The notes beneath the pieces are model-generated. The model was not told the origin of the DNA and did not search any database. It was given only the letters and a program-made list of their open reading frames with translations. Below, one piece after another: positions 157 to 25,967 of a stretch of DNA of 36,656 nt. Numbering within the stretch: the first letter of the stretch is position 1; each line of letters begins with the position of its first letter. The translations under genes and the position numbers were made by a program. The stretch covers positions 1 to 36,656 of the forward strand of contig JAFAXQ010000115.1 in assembly GCA_019240835.1 (NCBI GenBank), in the 5' to 3' direction. The stretch comes from Ktedonobacteraceae bacterium (GTDB taxonomy: Bacteria > Chloroflexota > Ktedonobacteria > Ktedonobacterales > Ktedonobacteraceae).

Positions 157-2526
157 TTATTGATCGTCATCACTGCGTTTCCCAGACGGCGTGTCAAAGA
201 GCAGGCCAAGCTCGGAACTATACGTTTGCAGCACGACACAACGCTTGCGCATGGCATCACCGAGTGGCCGAACTTTGCCACAAGAGGCCAACTGCTGATA
301 TCTGCCATGACTGATGTTCACAAACAGGCGTGAGGCGTCGATGAACGCATCGTGTGCCATGTGCTCAAGATACTGCTCTTCAAAACACCGTGGAAGCACT
401 TCCACCCCGTCGAACAGCTCCTCAAACGCTGCTTCGCGTTGCGCATCAGAGTTGAATGGACGCAATCCACGCAAATGGGAAGCAACCAGTCGAAATTGGT
501 CGGTGTACGTCTTCATCCAGGGATCGTGTATCTCTGGTGCCGCATAAATCTCGTCAAGCCATGCTCCAAGAGCAGCCTCGTCAATATCTTCCTCGTTATG
601 TGCCTCAAGCACGTCGAGCGTTCTCTGTACCAGTGCCTCAAGGTAGACCTTCTGCCCATCACGCGGCTGGCGAAACACGTGGACAGGGACAATGTGCTTC
701 TTGCGTGCGCGATTGACGCGTCCAAATCGTTGTACGAGTGCATCGAGCGGGGCGGGATCGCTATAGATCGTGTCTACATCGATATTCAAGCTGACCTCAA
801 CTACCTGGGTGGCAACGACGGCGAGAGCAGTGTGAGCCGCGTCTACTGCGCAGCGAGCACGAATGGTTGCTTCTCGTTCCAGTCGATCTTTCATCGTGAA
901 GCGGCTATGAAGCAGTTCCACACACTCTGGCGGAAGCTGCTTGAGTAATGCCTCGCGCATATCTTGTGCTCGCTGAATAGTAGTGCAGCAAACCAGAACG
1001 GATTTTCCCTGGCGCACATCAGAGATGATTCGTGCAATCCCTGCTTCGAGTAGGTCACCGTCCAGGAGCCGGAGATGATGGCGCTTGAACTGCGCAAACA
1101 ACGCTTGTTCTGCCATGATTGGCTCAGAAATCCCGAGAATAGTAGGCATGATCTCGCGCAGAAGAGACGGGAAGGTGGCAGACATCACAAAGAACCGTGC
1201 CCCATAGGAGTCTCGCAGGTGCTTGACTAGAGCAAGAAGAAGAGCGAGCCGATTGGCGTCGTAGGCGTGAATCTCATCAAAGATGAAGGCGGCCTGTGTA
1301 TAGTCGGCAAGCATCCCTTCAAACCCTTTGATCTGGTAGACGGTCTTGAGCATCTGATAGGGACTCAAGACTTTTACCGGGCACGCGTGCAGTCGAGTGA
1401 GATGGTGTTGCCATTGTGCTGCCTGCGCGACAGATGATGGTCCGCTCTCACCTTGCATCAAGCGTTGATACAGCGCTTGCAGTGCTCGTCCGTGTTGTAG
1501 ACCCACCGCACTTTCCCCGAAGTACGAAGACAAGCGATCATACATGGCATTCATACTCGCTTGATAGGGCAGCGTATAAAAGAGACGTGATGTTGCCTCT
1601 GTGCCATTGCCAAGCGCCCAGAAGAGCGCCGCCTCCGTCTTGCCACTGCCAGTGGGAGCAACCAGCATAGCCGAGGTATGGTGATGCTGAGCACTCTCAT
1701 ACTGGTGAGCATAGAGCTGTGCTATCCCCTTCAACCCTTCTTGGGCAAATGCCTGCCAGGAACGCTCTATGCCTTGTGGCACCTGTTTCAGATGAGCCGA
1801 AGCCATGTGATCTGCTGTGGTAGTGAGACCACGCAGCATGACCAGCGTCGTGACTATACGGAGGTCGCGCTCTTCATCGAGATCTTCGATGAAGTGACGA
1901 TAGCTGGTAAGCCAGGCGTGTGTCCGTTGTACGCCTTCCACACACGTCATACGTACTGCCTGCTCTTCATCGACCAGTGGAATGGGCTGCACTGCAAACT
2001 GATGCAGAGCAAGAGCGTCAATCCATGCCGCAGAACATTCCTGGAGCCAGCGCCATAGCCCTCGCACAGTGCCCTCGTCAAGTTGGGTAAGCATATCTTC
2101 CACCAGTTCTGGATTGGCCCGTTTGTCGTAGGTGGAGGTAATCTCGTGAGCGTCGCGATGGTGCGACACGATTGCCGCGAGCACCCACTTTTGCTCGACC
2201 GATGAGAATGCGGGCACTATCCAATCGAGGAAGGCCAAGGAAAGAACCTCGTGACGACGCGCCCATCTCTCTCGTGTACGGAGCATGCTTTGAAAACCAC
2301 TAGCAGCCTTGCCGAAGTCGTGCAGGAAGCACGCCCAGAAAAGGCACTGCCAGAGACGAGGCACACCAAGATAGGTGGCCAGATGTGGGCGCAGGCGTCC
2401 CAATTCGGCCAAGCGACTCAGTACCAGCCACGTATGCTCAGCAAGGCTCTCGCCTGGGTGTGCCTTGTCCGTGCTCCTCTTCGCCCAGAGCGTGGCTAAC
2501 CAGTCAGGCCAACGAGATGGTTTCAT
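157..2526 (-). CDS. cas3: CRISPR-associated helicase/nuclease Cas3 (HD + DExH)
   Basis: HD region (SLAEHTW...CFLHDFGKA...IVSHHRD), Walker A (APTGSGKTEAALF), DEIH box (FIFDEIHAYD), motif VI (QRFGRVNRARK); adjacent to cas5. Confidence 0.95.
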   Translation of the reverse strand: MKPSRWPDWLATLWAKRSTDKAHPGESLAEHTWLVLSRLAELGRLRPHLATYLGVPRLWQCLFWACFLHDFGKAASGFQSMLRTRERWARRHEVLSLAFLDWIVPAFSSVEQKWVLAAIVSHHRDAHEITSTYDKRANPELVEDMLTQLDEGTVRGLWRWLQECSAAWIDALALHQFAVQPIPLVDEEQAVRMTCVEGVQRTHAWLTSYRHFIEDLDEERDLRIVTTLVMLRGLTTTADHMASAHLKQVPQGIERSWQAFAQEGLKGIAQLYAHQYESAQHHHTSAMLVAPTGSGKTEAALFWALGNGTEATSRLFYTLPYQASMNAMYDRLSSYFGESAVGLQHGRALQALYQRLMQGESGPSSVAQAAQWQHHLTRLHACPVKVLSPYQMLKTVYQIKGFEGMLADYTQAAFIFDEIHAYDANRLALLLALVKHLRDSYGARFFVMSATFPSLLREIMPTILGISEPIMAEQALFAQFKRHHLRLLDGDLLEAGIARIISDVRQGKSVLVCCTTIQRAQDMREALLKQLPPECVELLHSRFTMKDRLEREATIRARCAVDAAHTALAVVATQVVEVSLNIDVDTIYSDPAPLDALVQRFGRVNRARKKHIVPVHVFRQPRDGQKVYLEALVQRTLDVLEAHNEEDIDEAALGAWLDEIYAAPEIHDPWMKTYTDQFRLVASHLRGLRPFNSDAQREAAFEELFDGVEVLPRCFEEQYLEHMAHDAFIDASRLFVNISHGRYQQLASCGKVRPLGDAMRKRCVVLQTYSSELGLLFDTPSGKRSDDDQ

Positions 2527-3247
2527 GCTGCTCTCCTACAAATGTGTGAAACATCAGACCGAGATGGCTCCCATTATCTTGCGCAGAGGTGGGGTCAATC
2601 CAGAATAGGGTCTGCTCTTTGCTGTCCAGAGACCAGAATGTGGTGCTCTGGACGCGGTTTTCCAACAGCAGATAGCGTGCGAAGGTTGGGGTGCGCTTGC
2701 GCTCATAGTCGAGATAGCGTGGGAGCAGTTCGGTGATGCCCTCCCCCACCTGTACTGCCATCTCATACGGGAGCAGCGTATGTTCAAAGTACGCATGCTC
2801 TGCTTGGTGTACCTCAATCACCTCGATAGAGGTGTAGGTAAACAAGTCTTGAGAGCGACCCAGCACAACAGTATAACGAGGGCTACGAAAAGCGTCTATC
2901 CATTCAGGACGGTTGAGATACAGCGTGAGCCGTGGCTGAAAGAGCAACGCACGCTTGAAGGGATTGACTCCTCCCTCCAGCACCTTGGGGTAGTTGGTTC
3001 CCGGTAGCTTCCCAGTGGAGATCGCCAGCATGTGGGTGTGTTCGATGTCATCAAAGCCAGCACGCGAGGTGAAGTGGTAGGCAAAGGCGATTCCTTCGGG
3101 AGGGATGACCTCTCCAAGCGCGCTACAGAGATGCCCATAGATGGTAGCTGGGGGTGGCATGCGAAACGACGGTTGTATGCCATGCATAAAGTGTGGTCGG
3201 CGAAAGGAGGTGGTAAGCCCCTCCGCTACAACTTTCAGGACGCGCAT
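2504..3247 (-). CDS. cas5: CRISPR-associated protein Cas5 (type I-B/Tneap-like)
   Basis: N-terminus MRVLKVVAEGLTTSFRRPHFMHGIQPSFRMPPPATIYGHLCSALGE is typical of Cas5; overlaps the cas3 start by 23 nt. Confidence 0.9.
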   Translation of the reverse strand: MRVLKVVAEGLTTSFRRPHFMHGIQPSFRMPPPATIYGHLCSALGEVIPPEGIAFAYHFTSRAGFDDIEHTHMLAISTGKLPGTNYPKVLEGGVNPFKRALLFQPRLTLYLNRPEWIDAFRSPRYTVVLGRSQDLFTYTSIEVIEVHQAEHAYFEHTLLPYEMAVQVGEGITELLPRYLDYERKRTPTFARYLLLENRVQSTTFWSLDSKEQTLFWIDPTSAQDNGSHLGLMFHTFVGEQHETISLA

Positions 3248-3259
3248 AGAAGCACCTTC

Positions 3260-4333
3260 CTATGCCAGCCAAGAGGCATTCTCTGCACGAGCCAAGTCTG
3301 CCACAAAATCGCGATGGGCATCCCTTGGATGACGGAGAATGACGGCACGTTTCGCACTCTCTCTGACGAACTGCTCGAATAGTTCACGCTGTTCATCCAA
3401 GTAGCCTTGCACCCATCCCACGTATATGGGAGAGAGCATTTCATCATCCATCGTCGTTAAGGCCTCTCGCACCGCCTCCAATTTGATTTCTGGCAACCCT
3501 TTGTTGTTAGCCCCAACGATGTGGCCAAAAAGATGATTGCCACCACGGGTGACTGCCAGAATACAAAACGCAGGCATCACGTCAGTGTAGTGGATTGCCT
3601 GTTTCGCTCCACCTTCTAAGAGCGCGAAAGCCTCAAAGAGTCCTTGCACGCGTCTGATACGCTCTCCCAGAGGAAGCCTGTATGCTTTCTCTTGTTCAAG
3701 ATGTTCCAGGTTTTGCTGCTGAGCAAGAGTCGTACGAACAGCATCAAGATTACGATAGCCAGCTTTATTGCGGTAAGAAAAGGTGCCGCACGCATGCAGG
3801 TCGAGTGAGAACATCCCTTGCAAGGTGGTACGGTACAGTTGGTGTTCATATGGGACAGGGTTGCCCTCATGCCGGGACATCACACCAAAATTAGTGGTGA
3901 TGTTAACTGGAGCGATAGAGACCAGCGTGCTCACCCGGAACGGTGAGACACGTGTCACTGGCTCTGCACTCTCTGTCTCTTTCGCAGGTGACATGCCTGT
4001 TTGCTGCTGTTCTTTTGCTGCTTTCTTTGCCGAAGGCATACGCATGTATCCAAGTAGATCATCATCCCACCAGAGAATCGGGTTACTATCGGTGTAGGCG
4101 ATCTTCTCCTCTCGATAGACAGGTGCCGCTCTCCAGCCTTCAACACGGTTCTGAGCAGTAGTACGTAGCCAGTAGCGAAATGCCTGAGCAGAGACATAAG
4201 GATAGGCTCCTTCACGTGTGCGGATCACTTTTACCCCGCTCGTGTTCTGATCTCGTTCGCCGACGATATTGCCAAGATTATTGAGAGCGGATGCTGGTGC
4301 ATTAATAAGTAGTAGTCCTGTGACAAATGCCAT
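3260..4333 (-). CDS. cas7: CRISPR-associated protein Cas7 (Cst2/DevR-like)
   Basis: LLINAPASALNNLG...VKVIRTREGAYPYVSAQAFRYWLRTT matches the Cst2/DevR Cas7 N-terminus; operon position. Confidence 0.9.
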   Translation of the reverse strand: MAFVTGLLLINAPASALNNLGNIVGERDQNTSGVKVIRTREGAYPYVSAQAFRYWLRTTAQNRVEGWRAAPVYREEKIAYTDSNPILWWDDDLLGYMRMPSAKKAAKEQQQTGMSPAKETESAEPVTRVSPFRVSTLVSIAPVNITTNFGVMSRHEGNPVPYEHQLYRTTLQGMFSLDLHACGTFSYRNKAGYRNLDAVRTTLAQQQNLEHLEQEKAYRLPLGERIRRVQGLFEAFALLEGGAKQAIHYTDVMPAFCILAVTRGGNHLFGHIVGANNKGLPEIKLEAVREALTTMDDEMLSPIYVGWVQGYLDEQRELFEQFVRESAKRAVILRHPRDAHRDFVADLARAENASWLA

Positions 4334-4345
4334 GGAAAACCTCCT

Positions 4346-5890
4346 CTAGAGTGTTGTTGCATTTGAATCAAGCGTTGTTGTATCAATATCCGCAGTATCT
4401 GGAAGCGCATCAGGATGATCGCTAAACCAATTCAGTTCATAAAGCCGCTCAATCATGCGGATGAGTACGAGATCACGAGCGAACTTCCAGTTAGGCTGCA
4501 TCATCTCGTAGCCTTCTTCAAAAACTGCTAGGTATGGCTCAAGTTTGATGAGCGGAGTGTGCCCTGCTTTCACATACTTGTAGTTTGCCCTGATAAGAAG
4601 CGTACGAAAGTCATCAGGCCAGCGTACCTTATAGAAGTTATGGAAGAAACCCTTGTCATCCTGCTCTTTCACATACGACGCAAGAGTATCCCCTAATTGG
4701 CGAATTTCTTCAATACGTTGCTTGTCCATATGTATCACCTCTTCTAAGAATAAGGCTGTAAACTGCCAAGAAATGAGGTTTACCTCTTGACGCAGATTGT
4801 ATTCACTGCGAGGATCTGCTTGTGGCACATGACGTTTTGGGATGCGTAGCAGATACGTCATAACAAAAGCGCGTGCAGTATCGGGCAAGCGAAAAATATC
4901 CTCGTACAGATAATTGCGCCGACCTTTGTGGGCAAGTGCATTCTCCTCCTCTCCTTCCCCTGCTTTCTTGGGTGGCTTTGGGCGCTCCCATCCACGCTCC
5001 ACAAGCCTCTGCCACACCTGTGTATAGTCAGGGTGATGCTTTGTACGAAGAAACCGGACGATGTTCATGGGAAGGTGATAGATCCTCAGTGGAGGACTTT
5101 TCTCGTCAAGGGGTGATGTCTGGCCACTATTCGTAAGGTGATATGCTGTAATAGAATAGGGCTGTTTTTCCTCATGTGCATCGAGTCGACGTAGCTCCAT
5201 AGCTAAGAGTGTTTCAACCAGCAGAGTTTGGGGTGACGACGAAGCATCAGGAAGTTTTGTCTCTCCTCCTGCCCTTGCAAGCGTTATTGCCTCCTTATTC
5301 TCGCGCAAAGCTTCGCGAGCCGCAGCCAGAAGAATTTTAGGGTTATCAGAATGTATCGCCAGCAGCCGTCCACTACACTTGCGGCAGCCCATCGGAAAGA
5401 ACTGTAGACATAAGAGAGCCTCACCCGACACGGGAAGACCAGGATCACCTCCCGAAGAGAAGTTGATAATAGCTTCACCAGTAACAAGAGGAATGTGTTG
5501 CCTGTACGCTCTTCCAGGAGGCAGCTCATCCTTGCCTTCCTTATCTTTCTTAAGGGAAAGCGAACGACCTAGCGCTGGCCATCCTGTGAAAACACATATC
5601 TCTTCAGTTTGAGGCGCGTCTGCACCAAAATTCTTTGCCACAAGCCGAGCATACTCGCGTCTGCGCTCAGCTTTGTCCTTGAACGCTGGCTGAGTGAAAT
5701 CAGAGTTCATCAGCGACACCGTGAGAAATGAGGTCAGTGGCTGTTGTGTGTAGTAGGTCTCAATGTACTCTGCAACACGGTAAAGGTCATCCTCAGTCAA
5801 GTCAAGAGGATGGCTCTTCTCCACATAGGCAACGATAGTCGCAAGACCTATATCGAAGAAGGGGTGACCCGTGTATTGCAATGCTAGCAT
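4346..5890 (-). CDS. cas8: CRISPR-associated protein Cas8 (Cst1/Cas8a1-like large subunit)
   Basis: 514 aa, first gene of the cas operon next to the array; CxxC segment (FFPMGCRKCSG) and Cst1-like layout. Confidence 0.8.
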   Translation of the reverse strand: MLALQYTGHPFFDIGLATIVAYVEKSHPLDLTEDDLYRVAEYIETYYTQQPLTSFLTVSLMNSDFTQPAFKDKAERRREYARLVAKNFGADAPQTEEICVFTGWPALGRSLSLKKDKEGKDELPPGRAYRQHIPLVTGEAIINFSSGGDPGLPVSGEALLCLQFFPMGCRKCSGRLLAIHSDNPKILLAAAREALRENKEAITLARAGGETKLPDASSSPQTLLVETLLAMELRRLDAHEEKQPYSITAYHLTNSGQTSPLDEKSPPLRIYHLPMNIVRFLRTKHHPDYTQVWQRLVERGWERPKPPKKAGEGEEENALAHKGRRNYLYEDIFRLPDTARAFVMTYLLRIPKRHVPQADPRSEYNLRQEVNLISWQFTALFLEEVIHMDKQRIEEIRQLGDTLASYVKEQDDKGFFHNFYKVRWPDDFRTLLIRANYKYVKAGHTPLIKLEPYLAVFEEGYEMMQPNWKFARDLVLIRMIERLYELNWFSDHPDALPDTADIDTTTLDSNATTL

Positions 5891-6022: not shown

Positions 6023-6207
6023 GTTGCAGAGGCGCTGCCCCGTGTGGGGGGTCTGAAAGTCTTAGTAGAGACGGCAAAAGAAGCCATCCGCGCCCAGTTG
6101 CAGAGGCATTGCCCCGTGTGAGGGGTCTGAAAGTTTTTCTTTAAGGATGGAGCTTTGACCGGCATCCAGCGTTGCAGAGGCATTGCCCCGTGTGAGGGGT
6201 CTGAAAG
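6023..6207 (+). CRISPR. CRISPR array A: three 37-bp repeats, two 37-bp spacers
   Basis: GTTGCAGAGGCATTGCCCCGTGTGAGGGGTCTGAAAG at 6097-6133 and 6171-6207 (identical), variant at 6023-6059; spacers 6060-6096 and 6134-6170. Confidence 0.95.
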
Positions 6208-6228
6208 CTATGTTGCTCAAATAGAATG

Positions 6229-6258
6229 GTTGCTCTGACTTGCGCAAGTCAGAGCAAC
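6229..6258. promoter_or_regulatory. 30-bp perfect palindrome upstream of the BRO-like gene
   Basis: GTTGCTCTGACTTGCGCAAGTCAGAGCAAC is its own reverse complement. Confidence 0.8.
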
Positions 6259-6284
6259 TTTCCACATTTTGTGGAAAGTTGCTC
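6252..6284. promoter_or_regulatory. Overlapping inverted repeat with 15-bp arms upstream of the BRO-like gene
   Basis: GAGCAACTTTCCACA-TTT-TGTGGAAAGTTGCTC; shares GAGCAAC with the preceding palindrome and ends 12 nt before the ATG at 6297. Confidence 0.8.
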
Positions 6285-6296
6285 GTCAGGAAGAGG

Positions 6297-7220
6297 ATGG
6301 AACAGATCATGGCTTATGAGGAAGAAAAACAGCAGGCAGTCACGCTGCTTGAAGGAGTCGAACGCATCCGCCGGGTCATACATGAAGGCCAAGAGTACTG
6401 GAGTGTGATTGATGTGGTGGGCTTTTTGACAGAGGCCGCCCATCCCAGTAAGTACTGGCACACAATGCGCAGCCGCATGCAAAGCGAAGGAGCGCAGGAG
6501 ACGCTCTCACAGATGGTCGAGCTCCCAATGAAATCTGCTGATGGCAGGCTCCGCAAGACAGACGCCATGAACCGACAAACTTTGTTGCGGCTGGTGCAGT
6601 CCATTCCGTCACCCAAGGCAGAGCCATTCAAATTATTTCTGGCTCAGGTTGGCGATGAAAGGCTCACTGAGATTGAGCAACAGAGTGAGACGTTAGAAGC
6701 CATGCGTGACCACTACCGTCAGCTCAAACGCGATGAAGAGTGGATCACGGCTCGGATCATCTATATTGCTACACGTAATGCCTGGACGAGTGAAATTCAA
6801 CTGAGAGGTATCAACGACAGTCCGAGCATTGCTCGGCTCACTTCGCTCTTAAACCTGCGAACCTTCGGGCTCACAACGGCACAGCATAAAGCCACGAAAG
6901 GATTGTCATCGAAACAGAACCTGGCAGATCATAAGACACGGATGGAACTTATTCTCTCCTCGCTTGCAGAAGAAACAGCAACCGGGCTTCACCAGAAAAA
7001 CGATAGCCAAGGATACGATGAGATTGAGCAGGATGTGAAAGAAGCTGGAGACACGGCTGCGGATGCTCGACGTGCGGTGGAACAACGGTTAGGTGAGCCA
7101 GTTGTCAGCTCTCAGAACTTTCTTGAGCCGTCTAAGCGCAAACGAAAGAAGCAGGCACTTCCACCGTCGAGTCAACAACACAAGAATCCGGAGGAGCCTG
7201 AGCAACAGACACTTTTCTAA
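6297..7220 (+). CDS. BRO-N / DinD-like (phage antirepressor-family) protein
   Basis: SPKAEPFKLFLAQVGDERLTEIEQ, AWTSEIQLRGI, FGLTTAQHKATKGLSSKQNLADHKTRMELILSSLAEE and C-terminal GDTAADARRAVEQRLGEPVVSSQN resemble the Bro-N/DinD family; AGGA-type SD precedes the ATG at 6297. Confidence 0.8.
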   Translation: MEQIMAYEEEKQQAVTLLEGVERIRRVIHEGQEYWSVIDVVGFLTEAAHPSKYWHTMRSRMQSEGAQETLSQMVELPMKSADGRLRKTDAMNRQTLLRLVQSIPSPKAEPFKLFLAQVGDERLTEIEQQSETLEAMRDHYRQLKRDEEWITARIIYIATRNAWTSEIQLRGINDSPSIARLTSLLNLRTFGLTTAQHKATKGLSSKQNLADHKTRMELILSSLAEETATGLHQKNDSQGYDEIEQDVKEAGDTAADARRAVEQRLGEPVVSSQNFLEPSKRKRKKQALPPSSQQHKNPEEPEQQTLF

Positions 7221-7249
7221 TCTGGTAGGAAGCTTGAAGTGAGGTGACT

Positions 7250-7431
7250 GTTGCAGAGGCATTGCCCCGTCTGAGGGGTCTGAAAGTCTTTGGCAAAACG
7301 AAACTGGCTCTGTTTCCACACTGTTGCAGAGGCATTGCCCCGTCTGAGGGGTCTGAAAGATTTATGACTACGCGCCAGGAAGCACCGGAGCAAGGTTTCA
7401 GAGGCATAGCCCCGCGTGAGGGGTCTGAAAG
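7250..7431 (+). CRISPR. CRISPR array B: three 37-bp repeats, spacers of 36 and 35 bp
   Basis: Repeats 7250-7286 and 7323-7359 (identical, CGTCTGAG variant) and degenerate 7395-7431 (GTTTCAGAGGCATAGCCCCGCGTGAGGGGTCTGAAAG), same orientation as array A. Confidence 0.95.
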
Positions 7432-7468: not shown

Positions 7469-7494
7469 TTTGCGGAAACAATCGTTTCCGCAAA
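7469..7494. repeat. Dispersed palindrome, copy 1 (TTTGCGGAAAC-AATC-GTTTCCGCAAA)
   Basis: 11-bp arms; same architecture as 17516-17541, 22605-22630 and 24585-24606. Confidence 0.75.
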
Positions 7495-7926
7495 AAATCC
7501 TGCCTCTCCCCTTCCTCTGCGTTTCTCTTTCCCCTGAGAACTCTCCCCTGTGGGGAGAACATGAGGGAAGTTTCCCTCTCAAAGTCACGCAACAAGCCGA
7601 AATACACATAGCAGTAACCTAAAATACCCCCGCAGGGGAGAACATGGGGGAAGCTTCAGTCCCCCAACAATTCTAAACCCAGAGCAAGACGAGAAAGTTT
7701 CCCCAGAGGGGGGAGACCATCTCCCTGCTACTTCGGCAATCAGTTGGGCTTGCTCCTGTTCCTCCCGAAACACGCCACCAAGGGTTCTTTCCTTCTTCTC
7801 GTTCTACCTTCACTTTTAAGCATTTCACCATAGGCTGTGGTCGTGATATTCTGAAACTCCGCTTCATTGCTCCCATCGGTGCTTTATGCTTGTGTGCAAG
7901 CGTTCTGAGAAGCGATGCCTGCATAA

Positions 7927-9982: not shown

Positions 9983-10091
9983 CACGTTCTTGACGTGTGA
10001 CTGGTTTCGCTTTGTTTCGCGAGAGGGTGAGATCGAACACACAACACACCCATCATTTTCAGAGGACTGTTTCCTCTCAGATGGAGGACGT

Positions 10092-13000
10092 ATGCCACAG
10101 GAGGGAGCCATCCCCGGACCAGTAGCTGGGCGCTATGTGTTGATCGAACGTGTTGGCAAAGGCTCAATGAGCACGGTGTACCGCGCACACGATCGTCTCC
10201 GTGATCAGCGGGTCGTAGCAGTGAAATTGCTCAACAGCGAGCACGGCGACGAGTTGCGACAGGAACTCTTTTCACGAGAGGTCCGCGCCCTTTCGTGCGT
10301 GAACCACCCCCACATCGTCGAGGTCCTCGATTCGGGATGGTCCGAGATACACCAGTGTTCCTACTTGGTCCTCGAGTATCTTCCTCGCACGCTAGTGCAC
10401 CTCATTGAGGAGCATCGACACGATCCCGATCATAGTTGGTGTTGGCCGCTCATGCGCGATATGGCGAGCGCCTTGGCTCATGCCCATAGTGAAGGGATCG
10501 TTCATCGCGATGTCAAACCGTCCAATGTGCTGCTTGCGGCAGATGGGTCTGCACATCTGGCCGACTTTGGCATAAGTTGGCTGCGCTATGAACTGAGTCA
10601 GCATGGCATCACCGTCTCCTCCTTCTGGTCAATTGGCTACGCAGCCCCAGAACAACGGAGTGCCCAGCAGGCTGATGAACGAAGCGATATCTATTCCCTG
10701 GGTTGCGTCTTCTACCATATGTTCTCCCGGCGCGAACCTCCACGAGATGGCCTCACCTCTGAGCTTGTGCGCGGCCTCTCTGGCGTACCCAAGCAGGTTC
10801 TCCGGGTCTTGGAGCGGATGCTTGCCACCGATCCCGCTCATCGTACTCAGAAGATGACCGAAGTCTGTCGGCAGTTGGAGATCACGCGCAATCTGGAGCT
10901 ACTACCAGAAGTGTTTCTCAAGGTTACTGATCAGGCCAGGCGCGATCTCTACACGCTGGGCCTCACAGAAAACACGCTGATGGAGACCGCCTGCCAGTAT
11001 CTCTTGGAGGAGGAACTGGGAGGAGATAACCCACACGAGGTTCGGTGTATGCTTGAGCGGGAAGGAGCGATCCGTCTCTACACAGAGACGCTGCGCCTGA
11101 TCTGTAAACAGGATCAGACTCTCCTTCTGTTAGCGGTCGCCGCTGTCCATGCCCCCTACCAGGCGCAGTTTGCACAGCAAAAGGAACAAGCGTCGCCCGT
11201 GCGCTATCTCTGGCAGGTCATTGGCGAGCAAGAAACGCGTCAGATTCCTCCGTCCCAGTATGCTGAGCTCAAACACACCCTCACCCAACTCGTGGCTCGA
11301 TTGAGCCAGCAGGCAAGCCAACATCTATCCGAACGAAAAAAGATCCGTGAGCGCCGGGACTTTCTGGCGACCTGGAGCAATGTCCTGGCATATCTGCGCG
11401 AACAACTTGATGCGGTGCCCCAGCTTCGATACACCTCACGGACCTACGATGCAGAAACCGTCGCCTTTGTCCTTGCGCAACCGGTGCCTGACGATCTCAA
11501 CTGGCCTCCCAACGCACCCATCATTGCACTGAATCCTGAGCAGGCCAATCAGGTGTATTTTGTCGGTCATGTCATGAGTAGTAGTGGCAAAACCATCGAG
11601 GTGAGCCGCGACGCCGGCGACGTGACCCGCGCCCTTGATCCTCCAGAGACGTTGCCCCCACGGGGAATCATCACCGTTTTCCAACAGGAAGCCACGGTGG
11701 CGCTTGAGCGGCTGGAAAGGGCGCTCGACCTGCTCTTGTGGGGAGGGACCGCGAATCCGCGCATGCCAGAAGTGCTCCGTGACCTGGCACAGGCTGCCTT
11801 CCTTCCGATTGACGAGCGTCTGCATTTCTTCCAGCCTGAATTGGGGGTGGATCAGCAGCAGGCGGTTCGTCAGGCGCTCTCCACCCAGGATCTCTTTCTC
11901 CTGCAAGGCCCGCCCGGTACTGGGAAAACGACGACGCTTGCTGAAATCGTCCTGCAGATCCTGCGCAAAACGCCGAACGCACGCATCCTGATTACCTCAC
12001 AATCCAACGTGGCTGTCAATCACTTGATCACACGCATTGCTGAACTGCCGGCAGATCAACCTATTGAGATTGTCCGCGTTGGTCGAGCGGAAAAGATCGG
12101 ACATGGGGCTCAGGCCTGGATCGTTGACCAGCGGCTCGCCGACTGGCGAGAGCAGATCCTTGCCAAGACCGAAACGGTCCTCCAGGTACTACAGGAGCGC
12201 GTGACGGCCCGACGACAGGCTCACAGAGCACAGCGCAGTGAGGCTAGCGAAGACACGCTGCTCCTCAGTCAGCAGTGGTTAAAGGAACTCGATCCACGCA
12301 TCCAGTCGCTTAACCAGCAGGCTCAGTCGAAACAGGAGGCTGAGGAGCAGGACCTGTGGGAAACGTTGGACTTGATCAGGCAGACGCTGCCCGAGGAGGC
12401 CCGCCCATCACAGGCTGATACGCTTGCTGAGGAACATCGGCGGCTGACTGCCCAGGTCACACGTTTGCTCTCCCCTCAGTTCCCCGGCTGCCAGGAAGAG
12501 GATCTCGTTGCGCTGGTCAAACAGTGGCGTCGCATCTTTGGTCGCGATTTTACCTTCGCCCGCCCCATCCTGGAACGCGCTAGCGTACTGGCCTCGACCT
12601 GTCAGATGACTGGCGGCTACTATCTGAAGGAGCAGCAGTTCGACTGGGTTATCATCGATGAAGCCGGTCGTGCTACCACGGCGGAACTGCTGGTCCCCCT
12701 GGTACGAGCCCGGAAGGCGATTTTAGTCGGCGATGAGCGTCAGCTGCCCCCTATGCTCGACGAAGCACTCAATGAACAGGTCCTTTCCCGGCTGGGCACC
12801 AACCGGGAGGAGTTGACCCAGAGCCTGTTTGCCTCCCTAGTAGCCCAGGCAAGGGAAGAGAACCTTCCCTCCGTTCAGATGCTGGCCACCCAGTTCCGCA
12901 TGCACCCAGCGATCGGAAAGATGGTGAGTACGGTCTTCTACCAGGGGCAACTGACTCACCAGGTCAGCCTTGGGGATCGGGCACATCATCTGCCCTGGTT

Positions 13001-13544
13001 AGAGCGACCTGTCGCCTGGTTGACCACCAGCAGGCTCCCGGAGGCCAAAGAAACCCGGCGGGCAAAGAGCTATTATAACCGCGTCGAAATCCAAGCCATT
13101 AGTACCCTGCTTCATCGCATGGAACGGACCTATCTCGAATCTGAGCAACACCGAACCGTGGCGGTGATTACCCCCTACAACGCCCAGATTGTCGAATTGC
13201 AGGCGGAAATTCTGCCCGGAAGCAGTTTCTGGCGGGCATTAACCATTGACATCTCAACCATTGACGCGATTCAGGGAATGGATCGCGATATCGTCATCTA
13301 TTCTACCGTTCGTTCGAATCCAGAAGGCCAGATTGGCTTTTTACGGGACCGACGTCGTCTCAACGTGGCGCTCTCACGGGCCAGACAGGCCCTGCTGCTG
13401 GTAGGAGACATCATGACGCTGGAGCGGGGAAGAGCAGGGGCCCTTGGGAACCCCTATCAGGAATTGATCCGGTACTTACGCAGCCACCCCGAAGAGTGTT
13501 GGATTGCCCCCTTGAGTGAAAAGGATCTGGTACCTCATGGATAA
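10092..13544 (+). CDS. mkoA: Ser/Thr protein kinase - Upf1-like SF1 helicase fusion (Mokosh type I MkoA-like)
   Basis: Kinase: VGKGSMSTVY, HRDVKPSN, ADFGIS, YAAPE. Helicase: QGPPGTGKTTT, IIDEAGRA, GDERQLPPML, TQFRMHP, STIDAIQGMDRDIVI, RRLNVALSRAR. ATG at 10092 has an SD (ggagg); the ORF track also opens upstream from a TTG at 9990. Confidence 0.85.
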   Translation: MPQEGAIPGPVAGRYVLIERVGKGSMSTVYRAHDRLRDQRVVAVKLLNSEHGDELRQELFSREVRALSCVNHPHIVEVLDSGWSEIHQCSYLVLEYLPRTLVHLIEEHRHDPDHSWCWPLMRDMASALAHAHSEGIVHRDVKPSNVLLAADGSAHLADFGISWLRYELSQHGITVSSFWSIGYAAPEQRSAQQADERSDIYSLGCVFYHMFSRREPPRDGLTSELVRGLSGVPKQVLRVLERMLATDPAHRTQKMTEVCRQLEITRNLELLPEVFLKVTDQARRDLYTLGLTENTLMETACQYLLEEELGGDNPHEVRCMLEREGAIRLYTETLRLICKQDQTLLLLAVAAVHAPYQAQFAQQKEQASPVRYLWQVIGEQETRQIPPSQYAELKHTLTQLVARLSQQASQHLSERKKIRERRDFLATWSNVLAYLREQLDAVPQLRYTSRTYDAETVAFVLAQPVPDDLNWPPNAPIIALNPEQANQVYFVGHVMSSSGKTIEVSRDAGDVTRALDPPETLPPRGIITVFQQEATVALERLERALDLLLWGGTANPRMPEVLRDLAQAAFLPIDERLHFFQPELGVDQQQAVRQALSTQDLFLLQGPPGTGKTTTLAEIVLQILRKTPNARILITSQSNVAVNHLITRIAELPADQPIEIVRVGRAEKIGHGAQAWIVDQRLADWREQILAKTETVLQVLQERVTARRQAHRAQRSEASEDTLLLSQQWLKELDPRIQSLNQQAQSKQEAEEQDLWETLDLIRQTLPEEARPSQADTLAEEHRRLTAQVTRLLSPQFPGCQEEDLVALVKQWRRIFGRDFTFARPILERASVLASTCQMTGGYYLKEQQFDWVIIDEAGRATTAELLVPLVRARKAILVGDERQLPPMLDEALNEQVLSRLGTNREELTQSLFASLVAQAREENLPSVQMLATQFRMHPAIGKMVSTVFYQGQLTHQVSLGDRAHHLPWLERPVAWLTTSRLPEAKETRRAKSYYNRVEIQAISTLLHRMERTYLESEQHRTVAVITPYNAQIVELQAEILPGSSFWRALTIDISTIDAIQGMDRDIVIYSTVRSNPEGQIGFLRDRRRLNVALSRARQALLLVGDIMTLERGRAGALGNPYQELIRYLRSHPEECWIAPLSEKDLVPHG

Positions 13545-15054
13545 CCTGCTTTCCCTGGCACAACAGGAGTTTGATGGAGCCGAGGCCACCCATCTCTTTG
13601 AGGCCGCAATCCCGCTCGCCTTTCTCGATATTCTGGTTGAAGCCTTGGAAACACAGAAGCTGAACAGCTTCGAAAGCTACTTTCTGCATGCGCTCGACAA
13701 ACATGTGCGAACGCTCTCGGAGATCGCCTGGCTCTACGGCCTGGAGGAAAGGGATCTCTACGCATCGGGTGCCAATTTACTTCGCTATGGCTACATCTGG
13801 GAAGGGGCTCCCAAACCCGAAGGAGGGCGTCCCCTCTTCCTGACGGAAAAAGGAGAACACGTCGTCAGGACGCAGAAAACGCCACCTGTTCCGGTGCGAC
13901 GCAATGCGCACCTGCATTTTAACCTGCTCACCTGGTCTGCTACGCCGCTGGAAAAGCAATGTGCCCTCTCTGCCGATCAGATGACTGCAGAAGGCCTTTG
14001 CATTTTGCCAGCCCAGCGACCGGAGCAACCAACTCTGGTGGATCTCACGCCAGAAAAAATCACCGTAGCGTTGCACGAGGTTCCTTTTTTCAACAATAAG
14101 CGGATCCTTGCCCTGCTCGCGCTTGAGCGCTCTCGTGCAGAGTACCTTGCCCCTGTTCAGGTGGTCTATCAGAGCGAACAGCGACGCTTGGCGGTCTTCC
14201 GTCGCGGGCTCGTTCTGCGCAACGAAACCGATGTCCTGCAGAGATTCTTAGAAACCGGGAAGTTCCACCTGCCCGATGACGCGATTTCGCTCACCCCTCA
14301 GCCGCCGCTCATGTCGTTGTCACTGCCGGAACCCCTTGCGGCAGCGGCTAGCCGCCTTTCAACCAACGAAACGACGAAGCGCCGCGTGGATGTGGAGTTG
14401 CAAGAACAAAAGAATCAGCTCGGGACGACGCAAAGCGAACAGGAACGCGTGCAGATGGAGCGACGCATTCGTGATCTGGAAGCAGCCCTACACACCCTCC
14501 AAGCAGAAAGCGGTACCCTGCGTCGCCGGATAGAGCAGCAACAAGGGGCGTTTCTCAAAACGGAAGAGCATCGTGCGTTCCTCGAACAGGCGCTCTCTGA
14601 AGCGAGAGACGAGATCATCATCATCTCTCCCTGGCTCAATCGCAGAACCTGCGATGATGCGCTCTGCCAGCGCATCGCCGAGGCCACAAAACGCGGAGTC
14701 AAAGTGCGCATCGGTTATGGAATCAATGAGCAGCCAGGCTCCCCCGACGCGGGGCGGAACCGATCGAATGCCCAGCGGGTGATCCGCGCCCTGCAAGAGG
14801 CAGTTGCGCAGGCAAGGGCGGCACCCGAGTTGCTCGATATCCAACGCGTGAGCGATACCCACGAAAAGATTCTGGTCTGTGATCGGCACTATGGGACCTT
14901 GGGAAGCTTTAATTGGCTGTCCTACCGTGGTGAGTTAGATCGGCAGTACCGGAGTGAGACTAGCACGGTCCTACGAGATCCCCAGACTGTTGAGGAGCTG
15001 GCGAGGATCGCACTCAGTGGCTGGCCAACGGCCCGGCCACGAGAACAAACGTGA
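13537..15054 (+). CDS. mkoB: PLD-family nuclease protein (Mokosh type I MkoB-like)
   Basis: PLD-type HxK(x)4D motif (THEKILVCDRHYGTLGSFNW) preceded by coiled coil and ISPWL strand; start overlaps the kinase-helicase stop (ATGGATAA). Confidence 0.8.
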   Translation: MDNLLSLAQQEFDGAEATHLFEAAIPLAFLDILVEALETQKLNSFESYFLHALDKHVRTLSEIAWLYGLEERDLYASGANLLRYGYIWEGAPKPEGGRPLFLTEKGEHVVRTQKTPPVPVRRNAHLHFNLLTWSATPLEKQCALSADQMTAEGLCILPAQRPEQPTLVDLTPEKITVALHEVPFFNNKRILALLALERSRAEYLAPVQVVYQSEQRRLAVFRRGLVLRNETDVLQRFLETGKFHLPDDAISLTPQPPLMSLSLPEPLAAAASRLSTNETTKRRVDVELQEQKNQLGTTQSEQERVQMERRIRDLEAALHTLQAESGTLRRRIEQQQGAFLKTEEHRAFLEQALSEARDEIIIISPWLNRRTCDDALCQRIAEATKRGVKVRIGYGINEQPGSPDAGRNRSNAQRVIRALQEAVAQARAAPELLDIQRVSDTHEKILVCDRHYGTLGSFNWLSYRGELDRQYRSETSTVLRDPQTVEELARIALSGWPTARPREQT

Positions 15055-15292: not shown

Positions 15293-15461
15293 GTTGCAGA
15301 GGCATAGCCCCGTGTGAGAGGTCTGAAAGTCGTTACGGCATGCAACTGTTTAGCGTGCGTCTTGTGTTCTATACTGAAGCAATGGCGAGAGAAGAGACAA
15401 ACTCGTAAGCCAAACGTCTTGGTCGTTGCAGGGACAGAGTCCCGTATGAAGGGTCTGAAAG
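15293..15461 (+). CRISPR. Two orphan CRISPR repeats (15293-15329, 15425-15461) separated by 95 bp
   Basis: GTTGCAGAGGCATAGCCCCGTGTGAGAGGTCTGAAAG and GTTGCAGGGACAGAGTCCCGTATGAAGGGTCTGAAAG: same 37-bp repeat family and orientation as arrays A/B. Confidence 0.8.
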
Positions 15462-17515: not shown

Positions 17516-17541
17516 TTTGTGGAAACAATTGTTTCCACAAA
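17516..17541. repeat. Dispersed palindrome, copy 2 (26-bp perfect)
   Basis: TTTGTGGAAACAATTGTTTCCACAAA is its own reverse complement. Confidence 0.85.
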
Positions 17542-22604: not shown

Positions 22605-22630
22605 TTTGTGGAAGCAGTGGTTTCCACTTC
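22605..22630. repeat. Dispersed palindrome, copy 3 (degenerate)
   Basis: TTTGTGGAAGCAGTGGTTTCCACTTC, same layout as the perfect copy at 17516. Confidence 0.6.
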
Positions 22631-22702: not shown

Positions 22703-22865
22703 ACTTCTTATAGGCGATAGTAAAGAGGACAATGGGGGTGATATTCAGGTGTTGTTAGTTGAGGTTAACGGATAGCGGTGGTCTCGCTGCGACAATTTTG
22801 TGATTACCTGGATGTGGACTGGTCAGGGCAGCGTCAACGTGTGTTGCGAGATGACGTTCTTTGCG
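22703..22865 (+). pseudogene. Decayed partial duplicate of the downstream antirepressor 5' region
   Basis: Reads DIQVLLVEVNG*... then, in another frame, VSLRQFCDYLDVDWSGQRQRVLRDDVL, paralleling ELQVLLVEVEGERRVYVPIRQFCDYLKLDWSGQRQRMVRDETL of the intact gene. Confidence 0.8.
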
Positions 22866-22936
22866 TCGATTTCGGGTTAGGTGTACAAAGAGTTTTATGT
22901 GGGTGTAGCACCCACACCGCCTACGGAAAGGTAGTG

Positions 22937-23962
22937 ATGGTCATGGTTGACAATATGGAAAACGCTGGCGATGGCTTAGAAGGTGTACAGGAACAGGAGA
23001 AAGCTCTGATCCCCATACAGGAGGGCCGGACAGATTTTCATGGAGATGAGCTTCAAGTATTACTAGTAGAGGTTGAGGGTGAGCGTAGGGTCTATGTGCC
23101 AATTCGGCAGTTTTGTGACTACTTAAAGTTAGATTGGTCAGGCCAGCGTCAGCGTATGGTTCGTGACGAGACATTGGCAGAAGAAATGACCAGCGTGGTT
23201 ATTACACCCACGATGGTCCCTGGCCAGGGATACAAGCAACGATATACAGTGATTTGCTTGCCCTTAGAAATGTTACCTGGCTGGTTGTTCGGCGTCACGC
23301 CCTCACGCGTTAAGCAAGAGTTTCGAGAGAAAGTACGTCTTTACCGGAAAAAATGCTATCGCGCCCTATGGGATTCCTTTCTGCGTGGTGAGCTTTTTCC
23401 CGAAGAGACGGCTGTGGTCATCTCTTCCACGATGGGAGCGACGACCATTGTTCCCTCCGGCGATCCCAGGATCGACGCATTAACCGAGCAGATTGATTTC
23501 TTAACCAGTATCAAGGCGTTCCTAGAAGAGCATCGTGCGGCGCTGCTGCAAGAGATCGGTGTGGTTCTCGAAGCAGGTCAGCAGCAGCTTCTTCGGCAAG
23601 GCAACGAGCTCTCTGCCCAATTGACGTATATTACCTCGTTGCTTGAAGGGCTGGTTGGCCGCCAGGCAGCGACGGAGGCGCAGTTGACGCGGGTTGATGA
23701 GCGAACCAAGCGCTTGACTCCTGCACACGCACGGGCCGTTCAAGGCATGGTTGAGCGGATTGTCGAAGCACATCGGCGGCGTCATCCGCGTGGGCCGGAG
23801 GTCACGCACATGCACGTGTATAGTCGGCTGAAAACGCGGTTCCGGGCCGGGAAGTTTGATGAGATTGATGATGCGCGTTATGGGGAAGTGGAAACCTTTC
23901 TGCATGAGATGCTTCAGCAGGTGATGAGCGGCGAGGAGCCGACGCAGGGGAGTCTTTTCTGA
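22937..23962 (+). CDS. Phage antirepressor-type protein (P22_AR_N + ORF6C-like)
   Basis: YVPIRQFCDYLKLDWSGQRQRMVRDETL is P22_AR_N-like; C-terminal VYSRLKTRFRAGKFDEIDDARYGEVETFL resembles ORF6C. SD ggaaagg before the ATG at 22937. Confidence 0.85.
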   Translation: MVMVDNMENAGDGLEGVQEQEKALIPIQEGRTDFHGDELQVLLVEVEGERRVYVPIRQFCDYLKLDWSGQRQRMVRDETLAEEMTSVVITPTMVPGQGYKQRYTVICLPLEMLPGWLFGVTPSRVKQEFREKVRLYRKKCYRALWDSFLRGELFPEETAVVISSTMGATTIVPSGDPRIDALTEQIDFLTSIKAFLEEHRAALLQEIGVVLEAGQQQLLRQGNELSAQLTYITSLLEGLVGRQAATEAQLTRVDERTKRLTPAHARAVQGMVERIVEAHRRRHPRGPEVTHMHVYSRLKTRFRAGKFDEIDDARYGEVETFLHEMLQQVMSGEEPTQGSLF

Positions 23963-24584: not shown

Positions 24585-24606
24585 TGCGGAAACAATTGAT
24601 TCCGCG
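24585..24606. repeat. Dispersed palindrome, copy 4
   Basis: TGCGGAAACAATTGATTCCGCG, same GCGGAA...TTCCGC layout, 11 nt before the serine hydrolase start. Confidence 0.65.
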
Positions 24607-24617
24607 AAAGGAGTGTT

Positions 24618-25967
24618 ATGATAGCGGACCTCAAGGAGCGTGTTGAGACCTACCTTGCCCAAGTTCAGCGTAATTTACACCTGCCGGGTCTGTCGATCTC
24701 GATAGTCCAGCACGGAGAAGTTGTGTATACTGCGGGTCTGGGGATGGCTTCCCCTGGCCGGGCCGTGTCTCCGCGCACACCGTTTATCCTGGGGTCGCTC
24801 TCGAAGTCTTTCACTGCCCTAGCCATTATGCAGCTCGTCGAGTGTGGAAAGCTGCGCTTGGATGATCCAGTGCAACAGCATATTCCCTGGTTTACTGTGG
24901 CTTCTCCGGATGTGGCTCATATGACGGTTCGGCATTTACTCACACACACAAGCGGGTTATCCTGCTACGCTGGCCGGAACCTGCTTTCTGGCCGGGGTAA
25001 TAAGTCAGTCGAACAGTCGGTGCATGACTTGGCTGGTGTGAAGCTGGTACACACGCCTGGAGCACACTTTGAGTATAGTAACTCGAATTACCTCATGCTG
25101 ACGCTCCTGATAGAAGTCGTGTCAAGGCAGTCTTACCCGTCCTATATGGAAGAGCACGTTTTCAAGCCGCTCTTGATGCATGACAGCTTTGTCTCTCACG
25201 TGGCTGCTGCCCCTGCACTCGCGCAAGGCTACCGATGGTGGTTCGGCTTGCCTCTGCCATTTCATGCTCCTTATCTGTATGATGCACAAGGGGCTGCATT
25301 TCTGATCTCTAGTGCTGCCGACATGGCACGGTGGCTCTTGTTGCATCTAGGGGATGGATCACTTGACGGTGTTCGTCTGCTCTCGCCTGCCGGAATGGAG
25401 GAAATGCATCGGCCTCAGATGAACACGAAGAAGGGGGGATCACAGGCTGCACTGGGATGGCGCGTGAAGAAGCTGACGGGTGAGTCCCTTCTCAGACATG
25501 GCGGCGAGGTCTCAAATTTCCGTGCTGAGATGATGATCTTACTTGGCCGAAAGCTGGGTGTGGTCGTGCTGGCAAATTGTAATAATGGGGTGGTCGCGCA
25601 CCTCGGACTTGATCAGATGGCTGACAACGTGATGCGACTCCTGCTTGGCCTGCCAGTCCCAACACCACGCCTGACCTTCTCGCGCTTTTATGCGGGGCTG
25701 AATGTCGTGCTGCTCTTGCTCACACTGCTACAGGTAGGAGTATGGACTTTCTTGGCGCTCTCCGCAGGACCTACGATGGCTCTCGCGCTCATCCTGACGC
25801 TTGATCTGCTTTGGCCTTTCCTAGTGCTCTTCTGGTTTCCATGCATAGTAGATATGCCTTGGCGTGGGCTTCGGCTCTATGTCCCTGACCTAGCGTACTG
25901 GTTGGGTGGGATCAGTGTCGTGACTGTGGTGCTGAACGTGATGATCCTCTTGAAATGGTTCTTGTAG
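24618..25967 (+). CDS. Serine hydrolase (beta-lactamase class C family) with C-terminal membrane region
   Basis: SLSKSFTALAIMQLVE (SxxK), FEYSNSNYLML (YxN), LLRHGGEVSNF; hydrophobic C-terminal segments. Confidence 0.92.
   Translation: MIADLKERVETYLAQVQRNLHLPGLSISIVQHGEVVYTAGLGMASPGRAVSPRTPFILGSLSKSFTALAIMQLVECGKLRLDDPVQQHIPWFTVASPDVAHMTVRHLLTHTSGLSCYAGRNLLSGRGNKSVEQSVHDLAGVKLVHTPGAHFEYSNSNYLMLTLLIEVVSRQSYPSYMEEHVFKPLLMHDSFVSHVAAAPALAQGYRWWFGLPLPFHAPYLYDAQGAAFLISSAADMARWLLLHLGDGSLDGVRLLSPAGMEEMHRPQMNTKKGGSQAALGWRVKKLTGESLLRHGGEVSNFRAEMMILLGRKLGVVVLANCNNGVVAHLGLDQMADNVMRLLLGLPVPTPRLTFSRFYAGLNVVLLLLTLLQVGVWTFLALSAGPTMALALILTLDLLWPFLVLFWFPCIVDMPWRGLRLYVPDLAYWLGGISVVTVVLNVMILLKWFL

What the first reader, a model, noticed from the sequence alone, without database searches (positions are those of the whole stretch)
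6023..7431. BRO/DinD-like gene embedded inside a CRISPR array
Three repeats lie immediately left (last ends 6207) and three immediately right (first starts 7250) of a 1,042-bp cassette encoding one BRO-N family protein with its own regulatory region, all repeats in the same orientation. The gene occupies a spacer position. The flanking repeats carry different diagnostic bases (CGTGTGAG versus CGTCTGAG), so these may be two sub-arrays. A phage-type regulator at this position could tie array transcription to phage signals or be a selfish insertion.
Basis: partly seen in the sequence, partly recalled or inferred. Interest (0 to 1): 0.75.

Follow-up and report, generated by a model that had tools for sequence, protein, structure and literature searches.

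The report
Defence-candidate gene inside broken CRISPR array
A common bacterial DNA-binding gene of a candidate phage-defence family, complete with its own conserved control site, sits between two three-repeat pieces of a fragmented CRISPR array; the arrangement is real but was seen only once, and it most likely reflects shuffling in a defence island rather than a new way to control CRISPR.

Summary
Three 37-bp repeats (6023-6207) and three more (7250-7431), in one orientation, bracket an intact 303-aa gene beside a divergent type I-B cas8b-cas7-cas5-cas3 operon. The protein has a Bro-N domain, but over its full length it is PADLOC candidate-defence family PDC-S13 (E=1e-83), a DinD relative. 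Its predicted fold is closest to DdrC.

The gene is a self-contained module. A 27-bp palindrome just before its ribosome site recurs before four homologues only about 41% identical. A search of 61 genomes gave six sites, five of them at such genes. Among those homologues, DNA similarity starts exactly at this palindrome.

The embedding is not conserved: none of 29 relatives' loci has an array within about 1.5 kb, and none of 132 public loci has one flanking the gene.

The array is a decayed fragment. Neither block has the leader-like element found beside this genome's eight-repeat array; its only other copy lies at 15325-15421, beyond a Mokosh pair. The 'diagnostic' bases do not split cleanly (G,G,G | C,C,G).

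Best reading: a passenger defence/DNA-damage-type gene in a rearranged CRISPR region. Control of array B through the gene's promoter is possible but untested.

The parts
6023..6207 (+). Array block A: three 37-bp repeats (6023-6059, 6097-6133, 6171-6207) and two 37-nt spacers; the first repeat is degenerate
6208..7249 (+). Cassette in spacer position (1,042 bp); no terminal inverted repeats and no target duplication longer than a 5-base chance match
6229..6258 (.). Perfect 30-bp palindrome P1 (GTTGCTCTGACTTGC/GCAAGTCAGAGCAAC), found nowhere else in the genome; overlaps P2
6252..6284 (.). Palindrome P2; core CAACTTTCCACATTTTGTGGAAAGTTG (6255-6281), conserved upstream of four diverged homologues; probable operator (or 5'-UTR hairpin)
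6309..7220 (+). PDC-S13 / Bro-N / DinD-like gene, 303 codons + stop, intact
7250..7431 (+). Array block B: three repeats (7250-7286, 7323-7359, 7395-7431), spacers of 36 and 35 nt; starts 29 bp after the stop codon, with no leader-like element upstream
4346..5890 (-). cas8b
   Evidence: PADLOC Cas8b 4e-176, Cas8b1/Cst1
3260..4333 (-). cas7b (DevR/Cst2)
2504..3247 (-). cas5b
157..2526 (-). cas3 (HD + helicase)
15293..15461 (+). Array remnant: repeat 15293-15329 (2 mismatches), leader-like element (15325-15421 matches the C24 array flank at 78%), degenerate repeat 15425-15461

Best explanation
The cassette is an ordinary single-gene PDC-S13 (Bro-N/DinD-like) module: one palindromic control site plus one gene. 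It came to lie between two leaderless pieces of a decayed, rearranged type I-B CRISPR array in a defence island. The protein probably binds DNA through its N-terminal Bro-N winged-helix region and represses its own gene through the palindrome at 6252-6284, then acts in a damage- or phage-triggered response (inferred). The CRISPR position is incidental: insertion into a spacer, or repeat-to-repeat recombination joining two array pieces around the gene (inferred). A possible by-product is that array B, which has no leader-like element and lies 29 bp after the stop codon, can only be transcribed as the 3' tail of this gene's mRNA or by read-through from the left (inferred).
For: Full-length match to PDC-S13 (E=1.1e-83) and phrog_15286 (5e-59). 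The same palindrome lies just before the ribosome site of four homologues that are about 40-42% identical to this protein. A pattern search of 61 genomes gave six sites, five directly upstream of such genes, and none with the reversed control pattern. In all six comparisons among those four homologues, DNA similarity begins at the first base of the palindrome (within one base), so the unit is palindrome plus gene. Homologues occur in 21 of 101 relatives: no array within the roughly 1.5-kb flanks of the 29 loci fetched, and none in eleven larger regions. None of 132 public genome or virus loci has an array around the gene; only two have a CRISPR array nearby. The leader-like element is next to the C24 array and at 15325-15421 only. 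Upstream of A or B there is nothing like other array flanks. Mokosh MkoA and MkoB lie between block B and the 15293 remnant.
Against: The gene lies exactly between two intact repeats, the cassette leaves both repeat blocks readable, and all repeats keep one orientation, which could mean a still-functional arrangement. Autoregulation is inferred from palindrome conservation only; it could instead be an RNA hairpin in the 5' UTR. There is no empty-site relative to show the insertion. In the only other genome of the genus held, an E. coli-type DinD gene lies about 5 kb from a mini-array with the same repeat, so some link cannot be fully excluded.
Confidence: 0.68

Rival explanations
1. Functional coupling: the Bro-N protein controls its own promoter, and array B, now its 3' untranslated tail, is expressed only when that promoter opens, so part of the CRISPR memory is gated by a damage or phage signal. 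Cas6 cutting at the flanking repeats would trim the mRNA like a giant crRNA.
For: Same strand as the arrays; no predicted intrinsic terminator on the + strand between A and B; 29 bp between stop and repeat; no leader-like element for B; conserved palindrome at the promoter.
Against: Arrangement seen once; block B has only two spacers with no known target; repeats at both outer ends are decayed; no cas6 or cas1 on this contig.
Confidence: 0.12
2. Two independent small arrays happen to flank the gene; no insertion ever took place.
For: Different base at one position in most repeats of A and B; two further repeat sites at 15293/15425 show that repeats are scattered on this contig.
Against: Neither block has the leader-like element expected of an independent array; the last repeat of B carries the A-type base; a single base change is also what normal growth of one array would leave.
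Confidence: 0.13
3. Spacer-guided control as in CreTA or crRNA-like autoregulators: a degenerate repeat plus partly matching spacer directs Cascade to the gene's promoter or the cas promoter.
For: Degenerate repeats at both ends of the locus.
Against: No spacer has more than a 4-nt seed match to either promoter, and none matches the window better than shuffled spacers.
Confidence: 0.03
4. Assembly artefact joining two arrays.
For: Fragmented 313-contig assembly with a second array of the same repeat.
Against: The junctions are unique sequence, spacers in A, B and C24 are all different, and the cassette occurs once in the assembly.
Confidence: 0.04

Closest known systems
PDC-S13 (PADLOC candidate defence family) / phrog_15286
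   Same: Full-length profile match, single-gene unit
   Different: Lies between CRISPR repeats; antiphage activity of this family is untested here (PDCs are described as unvalidated in PMC12988326)
E. coli DinD (SOS-inducible; helps remove RecA filaments, cited in PMC4849656)
   Same: Related C-terminal region (NCBIfam PRK11525, E=7.5e-4)
   Different: 18.9 bits against a cut-off of 242; the N-terminal part differs; no SOS box was tested
Phage BRO/Ant antirepressors
   Same: Bro-N domain; viral Bro-N and repressor-domain models among fold matches
   Different: C-terminal half is not an Ant or KilA-C domain by Pfam; only four phage records match by tblastn, all unannotated faecal contigs
DdrC of Deinococcus radiodurans (DNA-damage response protein, DNA-binding)
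   Same: Best PDB fold match, E=1e-6, probability 1.0
   Different: 13% identity, TM-score 0.3-0.5; about 75 residues shorter
Type I-B CRISPR array
   Same: 37-nt repeats, 35-37-nt spacers, beside cas8b-7-5-3
   Different: Split by a gene and without the leader-like element; no cas1, cas2, cas4 or cas6 found on the contig

Membership tests
CRISPR array, type I-B | At least 3 near-identical repeats with unique spacers of constant length | tested here: met
   6 repeats, spacers of 35-37 nt, all different
CRISPR array, type I-B | Adjacent I-B effector genes | tested here: met
CRISPR array, type I-B | Leader next to the first repeat | tested here: not met
   No similarity to the C24 or sister-genus flanks; leader-like element only at 15325-15421
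PDC-S13 | Full-length profile match | tested here: met
   278.9 bits, residues 31-311 of the 326-aa ORF to 4-278 of 286
PDC-S13 | Antiphage activity | not testable with these tools
   needs plaque assays
E. coli-type DinD (PRK11525) | Score over curated cut-off | tested here: not met
   18.9 vs 242 bits
BRO / phage antirepressor | Bro-N domain | tested here: met
   26.8 bits, cut-off 25.6
BRO / phage antirepressor | Ant or KilA-C C-terminal domain | tested here: not met
   No such Pfam match; helical C-terminal domain
CreTA / crRNA-like autoregulator | Spacer with seed match to target promoter | tested here: not met
   At most 4-nt seeds
Transposable element | Terminal inverted repeats and target duplication | tested here: not met
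   No inverted match of 5 bases or more at the ends; only a 5-base direct match
Transposable element | Transposase in the cassette | tested here: not met
   Single Bro-N ORF

The most novel reading that the evidence does not exclude
Part of a CRISPR memory (block B) has been put under the operator of a damage- or phage-responsive DNA-binding gene, so that its crRNAs are made only when that gene is switched on, with Cas6 cutting the mRNA out of the array transcript.
Probability: 0.1. Interest if true: 0.75.

Novelty: new member of a known kind. Interest (0 to 1): 0.38.

Why it matters
As a CRISPR feature it is a single, probably incidental rearrangement, but it shows that repeat blocks in defence islands can be broken up by other defence genes without losing the repeats. 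The more general and testable result is the 27-bp palindrome fixed to a branch of the PDC-S13 family in Ktedonobacteria-type genomes. It gives a widespread, unvalidated defence candidate a concrete binding site and suggests a switch: repression until damage or infection.

Tried and rejected
Spacer targets: none in phage records beyond chance, none for four exact 20-mers in IMG/VR. Spacer-to-promoter matches: none. Palindrome P2 in IMG/VR: none. A similarity between the right flank of block B and the sister-genus array was a 17-base low-complexity match. A 20-base match of the leader-like element in G032 lies inside an apparent coding region and was judged chance. A gapped repeat-like hit near 7925 scored 15, below the reported threshold, and was not counted. 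Solved-structure search by sequence: no relative. The single protein found no relative in genome contigs, and the alignment of 14 homologues was too diverse for a collection scan, so a smaller one was used.

Full report
What is there. The window is one complete contig (C288) of a 4.34-Mb, 313-contig genome. From its relatives it belongs to the Ktedonobacteria: one genome of the same order, G031, has a chromosome of exactly the length of the 'Ktedonobacterales bacterium bin_006' record (5,069,607 bases). A divergent type I-B operon cas8b-cas7-cas5-cas3 begins 132 bp left of the first repeat. Repeats: block A at 6023, 6097, 6171 and block B at 7250, 7323, 7395, each 37 bp and all on +. A gapped scan finds repeat-like sequence only there and at 15293/15425, and none in shuffled sequence. 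The same repeat occurs in one other array of this genome (C24, eight copies) and as a two-repeat mini-array in the one other genome of the genus. It was found in none of the other 45 genomes of the class.

The gene. The ORF 6309-7220 is intact. Pfam gives Bro-N just over threshold. PADLOC gives PDC-S13 over nearly the whole length (E=1e-83), and PHROGs gives phrog_15286. NCBIfam shows only a weak tie to E. coli DinD. An AlphaFold model from 39 sequences (mean pLDDT 86.5) has a Bro-N-type start and a helical C-terminal half. Its only significant PDB matches are all DdrC, a DNA-damage response DNA-binding protein of Deinococcus. Among viral models the matches include Bro-N, KilA-N and repressor-domain proteins. 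PDC families are described as guilt-by-embedding candidates awaiting validation (PMC12988326), and DinD as a regulator that helps remove RecA filaments (PMC4849656).

The regulatory region. Two palindromes overlap at 6229-6258 and 6252-6284; folding of this stretch is stronger than in all 200 shuffles (z -4.0). The second is the informative one. Its core CAACTTTCCACATTTTGTGGAAAGTTG has counterparts CAACTTTTTACA-NNN-TGTAAAAAGTTG just before the ribosome site of four homologues, including the second copy in this genome. Those proteins are only about 40-42% identical to the embedded one. A search of 61 genomes with up to two mismatches gave six sites and none for the reversed pattern; five are directly upstream of PDC-S13 genes. 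Among the four homologues, which lie in unrelated surroundings, DNA similarity starts at the first base of the palindrome (within one base) in every comparison, and no match was found upstream of it. The two changed base pairs (CC/GG to TT/AA) keep the symmetry, which fits either a dimer binding site in DNA or an RNA hairpin. The site therefore belongs to the gene family and was not made by the CRISPR context. The first palindrome occurs nowhere else in the genome.

Is the embedding conserved? No. Homologues occur in 21 of 101 relatives, but none of the 29 other fetched loci shows an array, and larger regions around eleven of them add none. Of 80 genome loci and 52 viral loci, none has an array around the gene; two genome loci have one 1.4-2 kb away. 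Two relatives' cas8b loci have no array beside them in the stretches read, and those genomes have no match to this gene. The repeat-only search confirms that no other held genome of the class has this repeat around a Bro-N gene.

State of the array. The flank of the C24 array on its repeat-5' side is a 120-bp element. It has one other copy in the genome, at 15325-15421 (78% identity, E=2e-17; alignment score 111 against 19 +/- 4 in shuffles), and there too it is followed by a degenerate repeat with the same GACAGAG change. I read it as leader-like. The repeat hairpin CCCC-N6-GGGG followed by exactly eight bases fits transcription on +, from general knowledge of Cas6 products; but the degenerate repeat beside the element leaves orientation not fully settled. 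Blocks A and B have nothing similar upstream. Between block B and that remnant lie a peptidase-like ORF, a radical-SAM gene and the Mokosh pair MkoA/MkoB. So on this contig the repeats are broken up twice by other genes, in what looks like a defence island.

Diagnostic bases. The G/C position reads G,G,G in A, C,C,G in B and G at 15293, while C24 and the sister genus are C. This neither proves two arrays nor one; it fits a mixed, rearranged locus.

Mechanism. Shown: gene plus conserved palindrome form a unit; B lies 29 bp behind the stop codon with no leader-like element and no predicted + strand terminator in between. Inferred: autoregulation; damage- or phage-triggered release; arrival by insertion or by recombination between repeats; transcription of B only as a tail of this gene or by read-through. 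No transposon ends or target duplication were found, and no empty site is available.

Verdict. The regulatory-coupling reading stays open at about one in ten.

Noticed in passing
9990-15054: Mokosh defence pair: MkoA-like kinase/helicase (E=7e-205) and MkoB-like PLD protein (E=9e-49), lying between block B and the 15293 repeat remnant
   Followed up: partly
15293-15461: Leader-like element of the C24 array, flanked by two repeats, 8 kb from the cas-adjacent blocks; shares the GACAGAG degenerate repeat with C24
   Followed up: yes
7472-7491, 17519-17538, 24586-24605 (and 22608-22627 with 2 mismatches): Palindrome GYGGAAACAATYGTTTCCRC occurs at least three times on this contig and, apart from one 2-mismatch site, nowhere else in the 4.3-Mb genome; one copy is upstream of a P22_AR_N antirepressor gene (22778-23962), one just before the ORF starting at 24618. 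Possibly the operator of that regulator
   Followed up: partly
L065 (G001:C279) 164-3925: In the sister genome a two-repeat mini-array with the same repeat lies beside a TnsC/TniB-like ATPase (by reading) and a large TnsB-like transposase (PADLOC TnsB 9e-17); possibly a CRISPR-associated transposon
   Followed up: partly
L065 (G001:C279) 5214-5882: E. coli-type DinD (PRK11525, 274 bits, over cut-off) with amidase- and holin-like ORFs (by reading), about 5 kb from that mini-array: a second, different DinD-family gene on a contig with this repeat
   Followed up: partly
G014:C29:59288-59314 (L214): Close variant of the operator (CAACATTCCACATTTTGTGGAATGTTG) not beside a Bro-N gene but 21 kb from one on the same contig
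   Followed up: no
L208 (G000:C88) 3663-4411: Second CRISPR type in this genome: 11 repeats GTCGGAAAGGGGTTGGCTTCCTGGGCGGGATTGAGAC next to a Cas6-like gene
   Followed up: no
L207 (G000:C180) 925-3018: cas1 and a cas6-like gene of a different CRISPR operon; no adaptation gene was seen on the window contig, which ends 156 bp after cas3
   Followed up: partly
L114 and L127: Two distant PDC-S13 homologues (Treponema, Eubacteriales MAGs) with a CRISPR array 1.4-2 kb downstream; the L114 repeat ends in a Cas12a-like AATTTCTACTGTTGTAGAT
   Followed up: no
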